Shown here piece by piece: positions 11,629 to 27,982 of a DNA stretch of 33,579 bases. The stretch lies in IMG/VR virus record IMGVR_UViG_3300015371_000110, positions 1-33,579 of that record; one strand, written 5' to 3'. The position numbers and the translations under genes are program-made. Under the pieces are notes generated by a model. The model searched no databases and was not told where the DNA came from. It saw only the letters and a list, made by a program, of their open reading frames with translations. Every line of letters begins with the position of its first letter. The first letter of the stretch is position 1. This stretch comes from a virus.

Positions 11629-11945
11629 ACAAGCTCGACGGCAAGAGTCTTGGACAGATGGTGGCCGACGGTGACGTGGTGGTGCTCTCAGGCTCGGCAG
11701 ATCAATGCGGCGAGATGGTCTGGGACAAGGTCACCGAAGGCGTGATGAACGGACTCATGAACTCGATGAAGCGCGATGCGCGCTGCGAGTGCTGGTGGGC
11801 CTTCATGTGCAAGGCGCGTCACTCGCTGATCGAGTCGGTCGGTGGCGAGGAGTCCTCGCTGATGCTGACCGCGCTGCAGATGACGATGCCGATGGCAGTC
11901 TCCAAGGTTGATGAGGAACATGCGAAAGGAGGGCACGATGCCTAG
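11625..11945 (+). CDS. Hypothetical protein (106 aa)
   Basis: ATGA coupling at 11625 links it to the previous gene. It has 106 residues, Met-rich (MNGLMNSMKRDARCECWWAF, LMLTALQMTMPMAVSKVD), with a C-x-C-W-W motif and no obvious domain. It overlaps the next gene by 8 nt. It is probably a small accessory protein of the early operon; function is unknown. Confidence 0.6.
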   Translation: MNKLDGKSLGQMVADGDVVVLSGSADQCGEMVWDKVTEGVMNGLMNSMKRDARCECWWAFMCKARHSLIESVGGEESSLMLTALQMTMPMAVSKVDEEHAKGGHDA

Positions 11946-12351
11946 CACCCAATACACAGGACCGACCAAGGACCAGATCGAAGAGACCATTGAACGCATG
12001 AAGCGCTCGCTTCATCATCAGCACACCAAGGATCGACAAGACAAGGACCACCTGGTCCTGATGCCTGCGGGCTCGAAGACACCGGTCTGGTTGGCGCAGA
12101 TCCCGAAGCAGTCAGCCTTCACGCGCGAAGAGACCAAGGACATCGTGAGCCAATCGGTGGCGCGTGCACTCGAGGTCGATCGTCAGCATCGCCCCGAGGA
12201 TGGCTGGGTGCAGCGCGCTGATGCCAGGGTCGAGTTGATTGCGCATGTCGCGCTGGAGCTGCGTGAGCAGCATGTGCCGGGCGATGCGTACGACTCGATC
12301 ATCGATGCGCTCTACAGGCGCTTCAAGCAATGGGTGGATCACAAGGAATGA
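11938..12351 (+). CDS. Hypothetical protein (137 aa), last early gene before the array
   Basis: The ATG at 11938 follows a strong AAAGGAGGG, so this start is preferred to the upstream in-frame one. The 137-residue protein has an N-terminal basic helix (EETIERMKRSLHHQHTKDRQ), a middle KSPVWLAQ-type strand region and a C-terminal helical half (VELIAHVALELREQHV, IIDALYRRFKQWVDHKE). No family is recognised. Its TGA (12349-12351) overlaps the first, degenerate repeat of array 1, so the array begins exactly at the end of this gene. Confidence 0.65.
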   Translation: MPSTQYTGPTKDQIEETIERMKRSLHHQHTKDRQDKDHLVLMPAGSKTPVWLAQIPKQSAFTREETKDIVSQSVARALEVDRQHRPEDGWVQRADARVELIAHVALELREQHVPGDAYDSIIDALYRRFKQWVDHKE

Positions 12352-12668
12352 TGGAACCCAATCAAACGAGAGCACCGAGTGAGATGAGTGAACCCATGTA
12401 GTCGAGAGAACCCAGCCTGGCCGAGTGAACCACGAAAGCCGAGAGCACCCTCTCACGCGAGTGAACCAAAGAACGCGAGAGCACCCACCTTGGAGAGTGA
12501 ACCCGAATGAAAGAGAGCACCCTTTGCTGTGAGTGAACCACGCGACGGCGAGAGCACCCAACTGCACGAGTGAACCCACACGTTCGAGAGCACCCAGTTT
12601 CGGGAGTGAACCCACGATTTTGAGAGCACCCAACTACCGGAGTGAGCCCATGAATACGAGAGCACCCG
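12350..12668 (+). repeat. TIGR-like array 1: 18 half-units, 18-nt period
   Basis: Alternating 9-nt cores GAGTGAACC (type T) and GAGAGCACC (type A) start at 12350 (degenerate T), 12368, 12386, 12404, 12423, 12441, 12459, 12477, 12495, 12513, 12531, 12550, 12568, 12586, 12604, 12622, 12640 and 12658. Spacing is 18 nt throughout except for two steps of 19. Each core is followed by about 9 variable nt, the first two of which are biased to CA. One T plus one A half-unit makes a 36-nt double unit with two spacers. That matches the edge-repeat/spacer A/loop-repeat/spacer B plan of TIGR arrays, whose processed RNAs are 36 nt. Variants are GAGAGAACC at 12404 and GAGTGAGCC at 12640. Plus-strand transcription is assumed from the neighbouring genes. 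Confidence 0.9.
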
Positions 12669-13477
12669 GCATCATCAGTGCCGGGCACCTAGAACCGATC
12701 GAGCGCCTGTCGCGCGACATCCTGACAGCGGCGCGCACACTCACCGACACCGAGGCGCGCTTCCTTGTCGACGCCTACTACATGATGCAAGAGGACCGAA
12801 AACGCGCGCACAACCAGGTCCGCGCATTGGGCGAAGATGCCGAGCCGAACTCGGTGGTGCAGTGGCTTGCCACTCAAAGCCAGACGCTCGAGAACCAGAT
12901 CAAGCGCGGCCTGGACACCTACACCGATGCTCACGTGATGGGATCGTGGATGCGCGAGGTCAAGGGCATCGGGCCGGTGCTGAGTGCCGGCCTGCTCGCG
13001 CACATCGACATCACAAAGGCACCGACCGTGGGCCACATCTGGCGCTATGCCGGACTCGATCCCACCGTGAAGTGGGAGAAGGGCCACAAGCGCCCGTGGA
13101 ACGCGACCCTGAAGACCTTGTGCTGGAAGATCGGGCAGAGCTTCATGAAGCTGTCGAATGACGAGGAGTGCTTCTACGGTCAGATCTACAAGCGGCGCAA
13201 AGCCTACGAGATCGAGCGCAACCTTGCCGGTGGCAATGCCGAGACGGCGAAGACTTGGCTAGACAAGGTGGGCAAGACCACCGAGGCGCATGGGCACTAT
13301 GCGGCAGGCCACCTGCCTCCATCGCAGATCGACGGGCGCGCGCGCCGCTATGCGGTCAAGCTTTTCCTGAGCCATCTGCATGGGGCCTGGTATTGGCAGC
13401 ACTTCAAGCAACTGGCGCCACTGCCCTACCCGATCGCGATCCTCAACCACGTGCACATGATCGAGAGCCCGCATTAG
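12650..13477 (+). CDS. tasA: Nop/IS110-like Tas protein without nuclease domain (TasA-like)
   Basis: The 275-residue product starts at the ATG at 12650, which is made by the end of the penultimate repeat (CCCA+TG), with GGAG at 12639-12642 as ribosome-binding site. An in-frame upstream extension to 12533 only translates the array. Residues about 15-100 are helical and coiled-coil-like (RFLVDAYYMMQEDRKRAHNQ). Residues 104-118 are a helix-hairpin-helix (VKGIGPVLSAGLLAH), followed by HIWRYAGLDP and KGHKRPWNATLKTLCWKIG. This is the C-terminal core of IS110/IS116 transposases, which is structurally related to the Nop domain. The IS110 DEDD/RuvC domain and the catalytic-serine segment are missing, and no HNH or RuvC is fused. 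With arrays on both sides it fits a nuclease-free Tas protein that binds guide RNAs and targets DNA. Assignment rests on architecture, not on a search. Confidence 0.85.
   Translation: MNTRAPGIISAGHLEPIERLSRDILTAARTLTDTEARFLVDAYYMMQEDRKRAHNQVRALGEDAEPNSVVQWLATQSQTLENQIKRGLDTYTDAHVMGSWMREVKGIGPVLSAGLLAHIDITKAPTVGHIWRYAGLDPTVKWEKGHKRPWNATLKTLCWKIGQSFMKLSNDEECFYGQIYKRRKAYEIERNLAGGNAETAKTWLDKVGKTTEAHGHYAAGHLPPSQIDGRARRYAVKLFLSHLHGAWYWQHFKQLAPLPYPIAILNHVHMIESPH
12665..12685 (+). other. Hairpin at the end of array 1
   Basis: CCCGGCA (12665-12671) pairs with TGCCGGG (12679-12685) around a 7-nt loop. It follows directly on the last repeat and lies inside codons 6-12 of the Tas gene. It could cap or protect the array transcript, or modulate translation of the gene. 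The role is inferred. Confidence 0.45.
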
Positions 13478-13845
13478 CCCGGTCCACTGAGAGCACCCAA
13501 ACGTTCGAGTGAGCCCGATGGTCTGAGAGCACCCGTTGTGAGGAGTGAACCCATGAGGGCGAGAGCACCCTGATTGACGAGTGAACCCCATCCCCAGAGA
13601 GCACCCTTAGGCGTGGAGTGAACCCCCATTCCCTGAGAGAACCCTTTGCCCCAGAGTGAGCCCAGATTGATGAGAGAACCCGGTGTCACGAGTGAGCCCA
13701 GATTGATGAGAGAACCCACCAAAGGCGAGTGAACCCAGCAGGTCGAGAGCACCCGTCGCTGCGAGTGAGCCCAAATGCGCGAGAGCACCCATTACGCGGA
13801 GTGAACCCGGACCCCTGAGAGCACCCAACGACGCGAGTGAACCCT
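13471..13845 (+). repeat. TIGR-like array 2: 21 half-units, 18-nt period
   Basis: A degenerate T-type unit (GCATTAGCC at 13471) covers the stop codon of the Tas gene. Clear cores then start at 13489, 13507, 13525, 13543, 13561, 13579, 13597, 13616, 13635, 13654, 13672, 13690, 13708, 13727, 13745, 13763, 13781, 13799, 13817 and 13835, alternating A and T types. Spacing is 18 nt with four steps of 19. GAGAGAACC variants cluster at 13635, 13672 and 13708, and GAGTGAGCC occurs at 13507, 13654, 13690 and 13763. A 28-nt segment is repeated (13654-13681 and 13690-13717), including one identical spacer, which points to local duplication of a 36-nt unit. All other spacers look different by eye. Confidence 0.9.
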
Positions 13846-13852
13846 GAAAAGC

Positions 13853-13877
13853 GAAAGCGCCTCTGGAGGGCGCTTTC
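13853..13877. terminator. Hairpin closing array 2
   Basis: GAAAGCGCC (13853-13861) and GGCGCTTTC (13869-13877) form a perfect 9-bp stem with a 7-nt loop, 8 bp after the last repeat. The plus strand has no U-run after it (CTGGTGGG follows), so it is either an RNA-stabilising 3' end or a weak terminator. On the minus strand CGCTTTTC follows the stem. Confidence 0.5.
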
Positions 13878-13942
13878 TGGTGGGAGCACAATTCGTGCGA
13901 AGTCTTTGGCCGGACTGATTCCCGAATGGGAATCGTAAGGCC

Positions 13943-14350
13943 ATGACTGCGCGCAAAGCAAACCCTATCCATCCACCAAACCCAACTGGCAAGGGACTCA
14001 CGCCAGGAGGGCGCCCTGGGCGCATCTCGAAAGAGAACCGCGACCTGGTCGACAACCTCACGATCGCCCTCGAGGTGCTCGGTGGCAAGCGCCTGATGGT
14101 GCCACCGCTCGCGCAGTACTTCGTCAACCTCGGCAAGAAGAGTCCGACCGCGCTCGCCTCGGTGGTCTCGCGCGCGATGCCGCTGCAGATCAAGGCCGAG
14201 GCCGGCAACCTGCAGATCGTGGTGCAGCAGCTCGTGGTGAGCGACCGGCCGGTGGCCGGCGTGATCAGCTCACCGATTCAGGAGCACGTTCAACTTCTCG
14301 AGGCCAGGCCGGCGCTGCCGATGATCGAAGAGGTCATCGATGCCTCGTGA
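13943..14350 (+). CDS. Probable small terminase subunit
   Basis: The 135-residue protein lies directly before TerL and overlaps it by 11 nt, the normal place of TerS. The N-terminus holds a TPGGRPGRISKENRDLVDNL motif of the G-R-P-x-x-R/K type common in small terminases and HTH packaging proteins, followed by helices (TIALEVLGGKRLMVPPLAQY). The C-terminal half contains LQIVVQQLVV and a helical tail that could serve in oligomerisation. The identification depends mainly on position. TerS recognises the packaging site and forms a ring that regulates TerL. Confidence 0.6.
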   Translation: MTARKANPIHPPNPTGKGLTPGGRPGRISKENRDLVDNLTIALEVLGGKRLMVPPLAQYFVNLGKKSPTALASVVSRAMPLQIKAEAGNLQIVVQQLVVSDRPVAGVISSPIQEHVQLLEARPALPMIEEVIDAS

Positions 14351-24528: not shown

Positions 24529-25494
24529 ATGGCTTTCCCAAATGTCACCGACATTGTCGCGACCACGATCGAGAACCGGTCGAAGAAGCTCGCTGACAAC
24601 GTCACCAAGAACAACGCGCTGCTATCAAAGCTGAACTCACGCGGCAACATCCGCACGGTCAGCGGCGGCAGCACGATCCTCGAGGAACTCAGCTACGCGG
24701 AGAACGCCAACGCAGGCTGGTACAGCGGGTATGACCTGCTGCCGGTCGCGCCGCAGGACGTGATCAGCGCAGCGCAGTACGACCTCAAGCAGGCCGCGGT
24801 GCCCGTGGTCTGGTCTGGCCTCGACCAGCTCAAGAACTCGGGCAAGGAGCAGATGATCGATCTGCTCGAGAGCCGCATCAAGGTCGGTGAGTCGACCATG
24901 ATGAACCTGCTCGCAGCAGGCGTGTACAGCGACGGCACCGGCGCCGGTGGCAAGCAGATCACCGGACTAGACGCTGCAGTGCCCGTGGCGCCTGGCAGCG
25001 GCATCTACGGGCTGATCGACCGGGGCACCTGGGCCTTCTGGCGTTCGAAGACCACCACCGCAGGCGCAGCGCTCACCAGCGCGACCGTGCAAGCGGCATT
25101 CAATGCGATGTGGGCAAGCCTGGTGCGCGGCAGCGATCGGCCGGACCTGATCGTGGTCGACAACTTCATGTGGGGCATCTACGTTGCATCGTTGCAGGCG
25201 CAACAACGCTTCACCAATCCCAGCTCGGCAAAGCTCGGCTTCCCGTCGATCGAATACATGGACGCGGACGTGGTGCTCGATGGCGGCATTGGTGGCTACG
25301 CAGTCACGAAGACCGCGTACTTCCTCAACACGAAGTACCTCTTCTTCAGGCCGCACGCCGACCGCAACATGGTCCCGCTCGAGCCCAACAAGCGCTACTC
25401 GATCAACCAGGACGCGAGCGTCTCGATCCTGGCGTGGGCCGGCAACATGACCTGCAGCGGCGCGCAGTTCCAAGGGCGACTGATCAGCCCGTGA
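24529..25494 (+). CDS. Major capsid protein (HK97-fold type)
   Basis: This 321-residue coat protein opens FPNVTDIVATTIENRSKKLA. It has the E-loop-like segment GGSTILEELSYAENANAGWY and SGYDLLPVAPQDVISAAQYD, the spine/P-domain region IDLLESRIKVGESTMMNLLA, and a C-terminal A-domain (DRPDLIVVDNFMWGIYVASL, RPHADRNMVPLEPNKRYSIN). Order and length agree with the small HK97-fold capsids of podophages. A strong terminator follows. The 119-bp gap upstream (24410-24528) holds an inverted repeat (CACCGG, 24438-24443, and CCGGTG, 24463-24468), CCCCATGGGG, and GATGGAGATCAACC before the start. Confidence 0.85.
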   Translation: MAFPNVTDIVATTIENRSKKLADNVTKNNALLSKLNSRGNIRTVSGGSTILEELSYAENANAGWYSGYDLLPVAPQDVISAAQYDLKQAAVPVVWSGLDQLKNSGKEQMIDLLESRIKVGESTMMNLLAAGVYSDGTGAGGKQITGLDAAVPVAPGSGIYGLIDRGTWAFWRSKTTTAGAALTSATVQAAFNAMWASLVRGSDRPDLIVVDNFMWGIYVASLQAQQRFTNPSSAKLGFPSIEYMDADVVLDGGIGGYAVTKTAYFLNTKYLFFRPHADRNMVPLEPNKRYSINQDASVSILAWAGNMTCSGAQFQGRLISP

Positions 25495-27004: not shown

Positions 27005-27982
27005 ATGGCGCGCTTCAATCGTCTGCAAAGCGGTGTCCAGATCGTGCAGGCAGTGAGCACGCAGCTCGGCCTGCCCGTGCCCAGGGCGATTGCAAGCGAT
27101 GCCACCAACCGCGTGGCGCAACAGATGTGGGGCCTGCTCACGAGCGAGGGACGCTCGCTGGTGAAGCCACAGCGCGAACACCGCTGGCAAGCGCTGACGA
27201 TGACCTGGTCACTCACCACGGTGCCAGGCCAGACCAAGTACGACCTGCCAGATGACTGGGATTCATTCATCGATGACACGAGCTGGAACGGCACGCAGGT
27301 GTCGCCGCTGGGCAGCGCAACGGATTCGCAGTGGGCCATGCTCAAGGCGCGCTCCTTGGGCCCGCAGTGGGTCGCGATCATCTACCGTGTGCGCGGCAAC
27401 CAGTTCGAGCTGCACGGCTCGCCGTCCGATGCACAGACCTTGCTGATCGACTACACGTCGCGTGGCTGGGTCAAGGGCAGCGGCACCGCAGGGCAGACCA
27501 AGGACTGGATGGAGCTGGACGACGACATGTGCCTGCTCGACGCGGAGCTGGTGACGGCTGCGCTCAAGCTGCGCTGGCTGGCTGAGAAGGGCTTCGACAT
27601 CAACCAGGCCACCAACGCCTACGACCTGGCGCTCGAGCTGGCCATCAATGCCGACCTGCAGAGTGAACGCCTCACGGTGGGCGATGAGGATGACGACGGC
27701 TTGCTCGATGGCCATGCGATGTACATCGCCGGGCCCGAAGGCCCGCAAGGTATCAAGGGCGACACCGGCACCATGGGCAGCACCGGTCCTGCCGGTTCCA
27801 CCGGCCCCGCTGGCCCTGCCGGCCCCCCAGGCACGGTCTTCCTCACCAGCAATCGGCCACCCACGCCGGCAGACGGCAACGAGGGCGACTTCTGGATCGA
27901 TCTCAGCACCGGCATCGTCTACGGGCCGAAGACTGGCGCGACCTGGCCGCAGGCGCTCGATACCACCGCACGCTGGGTGTAA
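27005..27982 (+). CDS. Head-tail adaptor-like protein with collagen-like segment
   Basis: The protein has 325 residues. Residues 1-240 resemble podophage head-tail adaptor/tail-tube proteins: the helical start SGVQIVQAVSTQLGLPVPRA, a beta part (WSLTTVPGQTKYDLPDDWDS), then DDDMCLLDAELVTAALKLRW and a helix pair. Residues 243-275 are eleven G-X-Y triplets (GPE GPQ GIK GDT GTM GST GPA GST GPA GPA GPP). Residues 278-325 contain ADGNEGDFWIDLSTGIVYGP, a motif common at tail-fibre termini. Collagen-like triplets form trimers, so the tail may project from the ring. The adaptor role is inferred from position between head and nozzle genes. Confidence 0.7.
   Translation: MARFNRLQSGVQIVQAVSTQLGLPVPRAIASDATNRVAQQMWGLLTSEGRSLVKPQREHRWQALTMTWSLTTVPGQTKYDLPDDWDSFIDDTSWNGTQVSPLGSATDSQWAMLKARSLGPQWVAIIYRVRGNQFELHGSPSDAQTLLIDYTSRGWVKGSGTAGQTKDWMELDDDMCLLDAELVTAALKLRWLAEKGFDINQATNAYDLALELAINADLQSERLTVGDEDDDGLLDGHAMYIAGPEGPQGIKGDTGTMGSTGPAGSTGPAGPAGPPGTVFLTSNRPPTPADGNEGDFWIDLSTGIVYGPKTGATWPQALDTTARWV

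What the first reader, a model, noticed from the sequence alone, without database searches (positions are those of the whole stretch)
12350..13877. Twin guide-RNA-like arrays around an IS110/Nop-domain gene: a phage TIGR-Tas (TasA-type) system
Alternating 9-nt cores, GAGTGAACC and GAGAGCACC, recur at an 18-nt period (18 half-units upstream, 21 downstream) with variable ~9-nt spacers, so the double unit is 36 nt with two spacers. Between the arrays sits a 275-aa protein with the IS110-like helix-hairpin-helix core (KGIGPVLSAGLLAH, WRYAGLDP). Established knowledge: TIGR-Tas systems pair tandem interspaced guide RNA arrays, processed to 36-nt RNAs, with Nop-domain proteins related to IS110 transposases and snoRNP Nop proteins, in phages. 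Inference: this is a nuclease-free member used by the phage to bind DNA of the host or of rivals. No nuclease gene is adjacent, so silencing or regulation is more likely than cutting.
Basis: partly seen in the sequence, partly recalled or inferred. Interest (0 to 1): 0.95.

Follow-up and report, generated by a model that had tools for sequence, protein, structure and literature searches.

The report
Phage TIGR-TasA guide-RNA arrays
A temperate tailed phage carries a compact TIGR-Tas system, a nuclease-free RNA-guided DNA-binding protein between two arrays of 19 paired guides; the system type is known since 2025, but comparison with about 80 related phage arrays shows that the two guides of a pair are inherited as one unit and stay unusually conserved.

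Summary
Two arrays of alternating 10-nt repeats (edge GAGTGARCCC, loop GAGAGMACCC) with 8-nt spacers, 9 + 10 units of 36-38 nt, abut a 275-aa gene on the same strand. The protein passes NCBI's curated TIGR-Tas model (221 bits, cut-off 100). Its profile matches solved TasR (1e-21) and TasH (5e-12), and its model superposes on TasH/TasR (Z 19.4/18.1), above IS621 (13.3). It lacks any N-terminal nuclease. It is therefore TIGR-TasA, a new member of a published kind (PMC12045711), one of 544 viral contigs found with relatives. New here, from 81 kin arrays: spacers flanking a loop repeat stay together (76/121) far more than spacers flanking an edge repeat (37/143, p=1.5e-9). Shared spacers are more conserved than tas fourfold sites, though array recombination could also cause that. 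Arrays show no CRISPR-like polarity. Targets were not found in own or kin phages. Best mechanism: a TasA-tigRNA complex binds about 16-bp targets on both strands without cutting and blocks transcription or replication, probably of rival mobile elements. Target class is unproven.

The parts
12350..12680 (+). Upstream TIGR array: 5'-truncated edge repeat at about 12353, 9 tigRNA units, ending in a 3'-truncated edge (CAGTG) inside the tasA coding frame
12650..13477 (+). tasA, 275 aa, solo Nop-domain protein without nuclease; ATG lies in spacer A of the last upstream unit, with GGAG at the preceding edge repeat as likely ribosome-binding site
   Evidence: NF052498 TIGR_Tas 1.3e-65, 221 bits, cut-off 100; PDB profile hits 9mty TasR 1.2e-21 and TasH 5.4e-12; model pLDDT 84; fold match
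13472..13847 (+). Downstream TIGR array: 5'-truncated edge (AGCCC) overlapping the tasA stop codon, 10 tigRNA units, last edge repeat at 13835
13851..13878 (+). Strong hairpin (10-bp stem) directly after the downstream array, possible terminator but without a T run
   Evidence: whole 70-nt stretch -23.2 kcal/mol, z -1.35; not called by the terminator scan
12665..12686 (+). Hairpin CCCGGCAT/GUGCCGGG at the end of the upstream array, within the first codons of tasA
   Evidence: 46-nt stretch -14.9 kcal/mol, z -2.56

Best explanation
This is a TIGR-TasA locus of a temperate tailed phage. Shown here: protein family, absence of an N-terminal nuclease, two dual-repeat arrays with 19 spacer pairs, and a compact same-strand layout. 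Inferred from the published family: the operon transcript is cut within edge repeats into about 36-nt tigRNAs, and a TasA dimer holds one tigRNA through the matching GAG and CC(C/A) ends of the edge and loop repeats. Spacer A pairs with one DNA strand and spacer B with the other, at adjacent 8-bp sites, without cutting. The bound, bent DNA is then blocked for transcription or replication. I think the most likely targets are other mobile elements or phages of the same host (about 0.4); host genes are second (about 0.25). The new comparative evidence supports the two-spacer unit: kin phages keep A-loop-B pairs together while whole units are gained, lost and shuffled.
For: Curated TIGR-Tas model 221 bits against cut-off 100; profile match to TasR/TasH structures; fold Z 19.4/18.1 against 13.3 for IS621; only about 28 residues precede the coiled coil, so no RuvC or HNH domain; same repeat logic and layout in published CGphi29; arrays on the tas strand in most of 112 loci and none on the other strand; tas is the only widely conserved gene nearby, 89 of 108 loci against 16 for the next; co-inheritance across loops 76/121 against edges 37/143; constraint on shared spacers. 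Targeting rule: PMC12045711.
Against: No target found: own and kin phage genomes give only chance hits, about equal in all four spacer orientations; two Halomonas prophage tigRNAs had no target in their own host genome; hits of two conserved tigRNAs in viral contigs look like chance. No promoter or clear terminator was seen. tigRNA production, TasA dimerisation and DNA binding were not testable here.
Confidence: 0.75

Rival explanations
1. TasA uses its arrays to regulate host genes or counter host defence rather than rival mobile elements; the shared spacers track conserved host sequence.
For: Shared spacers are far more conserved than tas fourfold sites, which suits slowly changing targets; own and kin phages are not targeted above chance; no nuclease.
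Against: No match of two Halomonas prophage tigRNAs in their host genome (only two of about six tested, one of them at gap 2 only). Many units differ between close kin, more like a changing target set.
Confidence: 0.25
2. TasA works with a partner in trans (a phage nuclease, an integrase, or a ParB-like protein) and positions it at target DNA; the complex is not only a roadblock.
For: The paper reports tasParB operons; a recurring neighbour in 10 kin loci resembles ParB (weak Pfam ParB_N hit). The phage carries a RusA-like and an exonuclease gene elsewhere.
Against: No gene beside tas is conserved across the family, and the window has no ParB-like or nuclease gene adjacent to the arrays.
Confidence: 0.12
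3. It is an IS110-family transposase or a remnant of one flanked by unrelated repeats.
For: Pfam Transposase_20 hit 5e-5 and PHROG 4285 labelled transposase.
Against: No room for the DEDD catalytic domain; NCBIfam IS110 model 25 bits against cut-off 140; best folds and profiles are Tas proteins; alternating guide arrays on both sides and in most relatives.
Confidence: 0.01
4. The locus is a decaying, non-functional TIGR system.
For: The upstream array runs into the coding frame, the terminator is imperfect, and half-unit lengths vary slightly.
Against: Intact ORF, invariant family residues kept, regular repeats, near-identical locus in other metagenomes.
Confidence: 0.05

Closest known systems
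TIGR-TasA (dual-repeat class; e.g. FpTIGR of Flavonifractor plautii, Faure et al. 2025, PMC12045711)
   Same: Solo Nop-domain protein, no nuclease, alternating edge/loop repeats with short paired spacers, arrays upstream and downstream, truncated edge repeats at array ends, phage setting.
   Different: 8-nt spacers instead of 9; repeat ends GAG...CC(C/A) instead of UG...CCA of TasR arrays; last upstream unit overlaps the tas start; no clear T-run terminator; no TasParB gene.
TIGR-TasH of Salicola phage CGphi29 (SpTIGR; PDB 9w04, 21kl)
   Same: Closest solved fold (Z 19.4), 8-nt spacers, similar repeat logic (edge AAGCGAGCCA, loop AAGACAACCA).
   Different: TasH has an N-terminal HNH nuclease; the window protein has none.
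TaTasR (PDB 9mty)
   Same: Nop domain and coiled coil, profile E 1e-21, Z 18.1.
   Different: TasR has an N-terminal RuvC nuclease and 9-nt spacers.
IS110 family (IS621, ISCro4) RNA-guided recombinases
   Same: Shared RNA-binding core, Z 13.3, Transposase_20 match.
   Different: IS110 has a DEDD catalytic domain and a single bridge RNA, no guide array.

Membership tests
TIGR-Tas (dual-repeat class) | Protein of the Tas Nop-domain family | tested here: met
   NF052498 221 bits against 100; TasR 1.2e-21, TasH 5.4e-12; fold Z 19.4/18.1
TIGR-Tas (dual-repeat class) | Two distinct alternating 8-12-nt repeats with short variable spacers (usually 9, 8 in SpTIGR) | tested here: met
   10-nt edge and loop repeats, 8-nt spacers
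TIGR-Tas (dual-repeat class) | Array adjacent to tas, upstream and/or downstream | tested here: met
   Arrays overlap or abut both ends of the ORF; most relatives likewise
TIGR-Tas (dual-repeat class) | Array begins with 5'-truncated and ends with 3'-truncated edge repeat | tested here: met
   GGAACCC at 12353, AGCCC at 13475, CAGTG at 12676; the downstream array ends with a full edge repeat
TIGR-Tas (dual-repeat class) | Rho-independent terminator after the array | tested here: inconclusive
   Strong hairpin at 13851-13878 but no T run
TIGR-Tas (dual-repeat class) | Box C / box D motifs shared by edge and loop repeats | tested here: met
   Both repeats start GAG and end CC(C/A) in the window and kin; binding by Tas not tested
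TIGR-Tas (dual-repeat class) | Processing to 36-nt tigRNAs bound by Tas | not testable with these tools
   Needs small-RNA sequencing; unit length is 36-38 nt
TIGR-Tas (dual-repeat class) | Tandem-spacer DNA targeting on opposite strands | not testable with these tools
   No protospacers found; co-inheritance across loop repeats is indirect support
TasA subtype | No HNH or RuvC nuclease domain | tested here: met
   275 aa; only about 28 residues before the coiled coil; no nuclease family hit
TasH / TasR subtypes | N-terminal HNH or RuvC nuclease | tested here: not met
   Alignment to TasH starts at chain residue 64 and to TasR at 111; the window protein has no counterpart of the earlier part
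IS110 transposase | N-terminal DEDD catalytic domain and family score | tested here: not met
   IS110 model 25 bits against cut-off 140; alignment to IS621 starts at chain residue 125

The most novel reading that the evidence does not exclude
In nuclease-free phage TIGR systems the tigRNA (A-loop-B) is the heritable unit. Arrays evolve as non-polar mosaics of whole units, and the spacers of retained units are held under purifying selection against conserved targets, so TasA guides act as a maintained silencing repertoire rather than a CRISPR-like infection record. In this phage and several kin the terminal edge repeat also serves as the ribosome-binding site of tasA, so that array processing would limit TasA synthesis.
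Probability: 0.35. Interest if true: 0.72.

Novelty: new member of a known kind. Interest (0 to 1): 0.5.

Why it matters
TIGR-Tas was described in 2025; what TasA does, what the arrays target and how arrays grow are open questions stated in that paper. This locus is a clean, compact TasA case. Its kin give a population data set that speaks to array evolution: paired spacers travel together, units turn over throughout the array, and retained spacers are constrained. That makes target class and array turnover directly testable.

Tried and rejected
Target search: about 2,800 adjacent spacer pairs against 0.9 Mb of kin loci and 1,771 pairs against 31 phage genomes, own and kin, about 1.5 Mb. Exact and one-mismatch hits equal those of shuffled partners and of the three wrong orientations, so neither self- nor kin-targeting is shown. 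Halomonas prophage tigRNAs: one (gap 2, up to one mismatch) in 61 genomes of the genus, no hit in its own host; one exact search in its own host, none. Two conserved tigRNAs against all viral contigs gave 34 and more than 120 hits without a shared context that stands out. Rfam: no match. PADLOC: no match for TasA. Sigma-70 promoters: none found near the locus. Codon-like 3-nt spacing of spacer changes within one spacer: 52 of 185 distances against 25% expected, no signal. IS110 identity rejected on domain content. The 15-nt tandem repeats in L014 and L015 are a different thing. No Nop5/Nop58 structure appeared among the listed fold matches; its absence is not informative. Searches failed on wrong coordinates and were repeated.

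Full report
Observation. The window (33,579 bases, an IMG/VR virus record) holds two arrays on the + strand. GAGTGAACC occurs 13 times and GAGAGCACC 15 times exactly, all inside 12350-12667 and 13489-13844. The motif pair at 18-nt spacing is found 29 times, against 0.00 in 100 dinucleotide shuffles. Repeats are best read as 10 nt (edge GAGTGARCCC, loop GAGAGMACCC) with 8-nt spacers; six of the steps are 19 nt instead of 18. Counting from the 5'-truncated edge repeats at about 12353 (GGAACCC, right after the TGA of the upstream gene) and about 13475 (AGCCC, overlapping the tas stop codon TAG), there are 9 and 10 complete tigRNA units. Two other metagenome contigs carry the same locus (L002 99.99%, L003 99.89% identical).

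Protein. The 275-aa ORF 12650-13474 matches NCBIfam NF052498 TIGR_Tas at 221 bits (cut-off 100) and IS110 at only 25 bits (cut-off 140). The NF052498 name says endonuclease, but this protein has no nuclease domain. Pfam gives Transposase_20 (5e-5) and PHROGs 'transposase' 4285. A 16-sequence profile hits the solved TasR 9mty (1.2e-21) and TasH (5.4e-12), with IS621 weaker (6.7e-5). AlphaFold2 gives pLDDT 84 and pTM 0.81. Foldseek and VIA-align rank TasH (Z 19.4) and TasR (18.1) first and IS621 at 13.3. Alignment to TasH starts at its residue 64 and to TasR at 111, behind their nucleases; the window protein has only about 28 residues there, the first 12 of them of low confidence. It is TasA by architecture.

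Setting. Nearby genes are those of a temperate tailed phage: integrase at 1585, large terminase at 14340, major head protein at 24529. The arrays and tasA fill the space between an upstream gene ending at 12351 and a 135-aa gene at 13943 just before the terminase. No sigma-70-like promoter is found there. A strong hairpin follows the downstream array but lacks a T run. There is no adjacent nuclease or ParB-like gene.

Relatives. One scan found 544 viral contigs encoding a relative (best 80 kept), and another found 10 bacterial contigs, including Ca. Propionivibrio aalborgensis, Halomonas sp. NO4 and Acidobacteriaceae KBS 96. An array detector tuned to the repeat pattern finds arrays on the tas strand in most of the loci and none on the opposite strand. 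Phage CGphi29, the published TasH case, has edge AAGCGAGCCA and loop AAGACAACCA with 8-nt spacers, which helps to fix which window repeat is edge and which is loop. tas itself is the only widely shared gene (89 of 108 loci; next cluster 16).

Array evolution. In kin phages with partly shared arrays, shared units mostly keep their order but are interleaved with private ones. After collapsing near-identical arrays to 81, a spacer shared by two or more arrays has the same next spacer in all of them in 76 of 121 cases across a loop repeat and in 37 of 143 across an edge repeat (Fisher p 1.5e-9). When the loop-linked partner differs, it differs by 1-2 nt in 46 of 61 comparisons; edge-linked alternatives mostly differ at 4 or more of 8 positions. 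This is what is expected if A-loop-B is one functional or one acquired unit. Arrays are related by descent, so the test's independence is approximate. Private units occur in all fifths of the array (fractions 0.68, 0.69, 0.70, 0.49, 0.77), unlike leader-end growth in CRISPR. Shared units have spacer identities of 0.94-0.98 where tas fourfold sites are 0.70-0.76 identical in well-sampled comparisons (L052/L055, L047/L055, L045/L055, L051/L052). Units were matched with at most 5 mismatches of 16, which biases identities upward, and exchange of array segments between phages could also cause this; so purifying selection is likely but not proven.

Start codon inside the array. tasA begins with ATG 12650, in spacer A of the last upstream unit; GGAG, made by the last base of the preceding spacer plus the edge repeat, lies 7-8 nt upstream. 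No in-frame ATG, GTG or TTG lies between it and the conserved part of the protein. In several relatives (L004, L013, L015, L093, L095, L105) the terminal truncated edge repeat likewise overlaps the GGAG- or AGGAG-like ribosome-binding site of tas. Since published processing cuts in the middle of edge repeats, array processing could separate the ribosome-binding site from the start codon and limit TasA synthesis. This is inference.

Targets. With the published rule (A on one strand, B on the other, gap 0-2), the expected target is A + rc(B). That orientation is derived here from the reported 8-nt 3' overhangs and C-5 rule. Searches in own and kin phages gave chance-level hits in all orientations, and small searches in a host genus and in all viral contigs gave nothing convincing. 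Targets therefore remain unknown.

Conclusion. This is a TIGR-TasA locus (identity about 0.97). The most likely mechanism is guide-directed DNA binding without cleavage that silences or blocks targeted DNA. Whether the targets are rival elements or host genes is open. It is a new member of a known kind; the unit-wise inheritance and constraint on spacers across kin are, as far as the held literature shows, not yet described.

Noticed in passing
window 13654-13717: Two neighbouring tigRNA units share the same spacer A (AGATTGAT) but have different spacer B; about 20 such half-shared pairs of units occur within arrays of the window and its kin.
   Followed up: partly
window 12638-12686: The tasA ribosome-binding site and first 12 codons are made of array sequence; a strong hairpin lies just inside the coding frame. 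In at least six kin loci the truncated terminal edge repeat overlaps the tas ribosome-binding site.
   Followed up: partly
L113:3620-3960 (Microcystis phage Mvi-JY20, PP438412.1): A similar array (ATGCGAGCC / ACGAAACCC) follows a hypothetical protein related to TasA; array and gene carry no such annotation in the record.
   Followed up: no
L023, L024, L025: TasA loci with arrays in bacterial genomes (Ca. Propionivibrio aalborgensis, Halomonas sp. NO4, Acidobacteriaceae KBS 96), giving named hosts.
   Followed up: partly
L035:5364-6221: A weakly ParB-like gene directly after the array, with homologues in 10 kin loci, probably the published tasParB.
   Followed up: partly
kin arrays L035-L110: In near-identical tigRNAs, positions 1, 4 and 7 of spacer B vary least (4, 2, 4 of 72 clusters) while spacer A is flat; post hoc, unexplained.
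   Followed up: no
L020:1-360 and 1580-1800: A relative with a different repeat pair (GAGTGGCC / GACAGGATC), about 35-nt units, beside a longer Tas protein with insertions.
   Followed up: no
L014:438-977 and L015:8802-9266: Long runs of 15-nt tandem repeats (29 and 24 copies), in a different position from the TIGR arrays.
   Followed up: no
window 27005-27982: An SU10-type adaptor protein with a collagen-like tail.
   Followed up: no
window 11935-12351: The gene just upstream of the array has only a marginal PADLOC hit (PDC-S15, E 0.005); function unknown.
   Followed up: no
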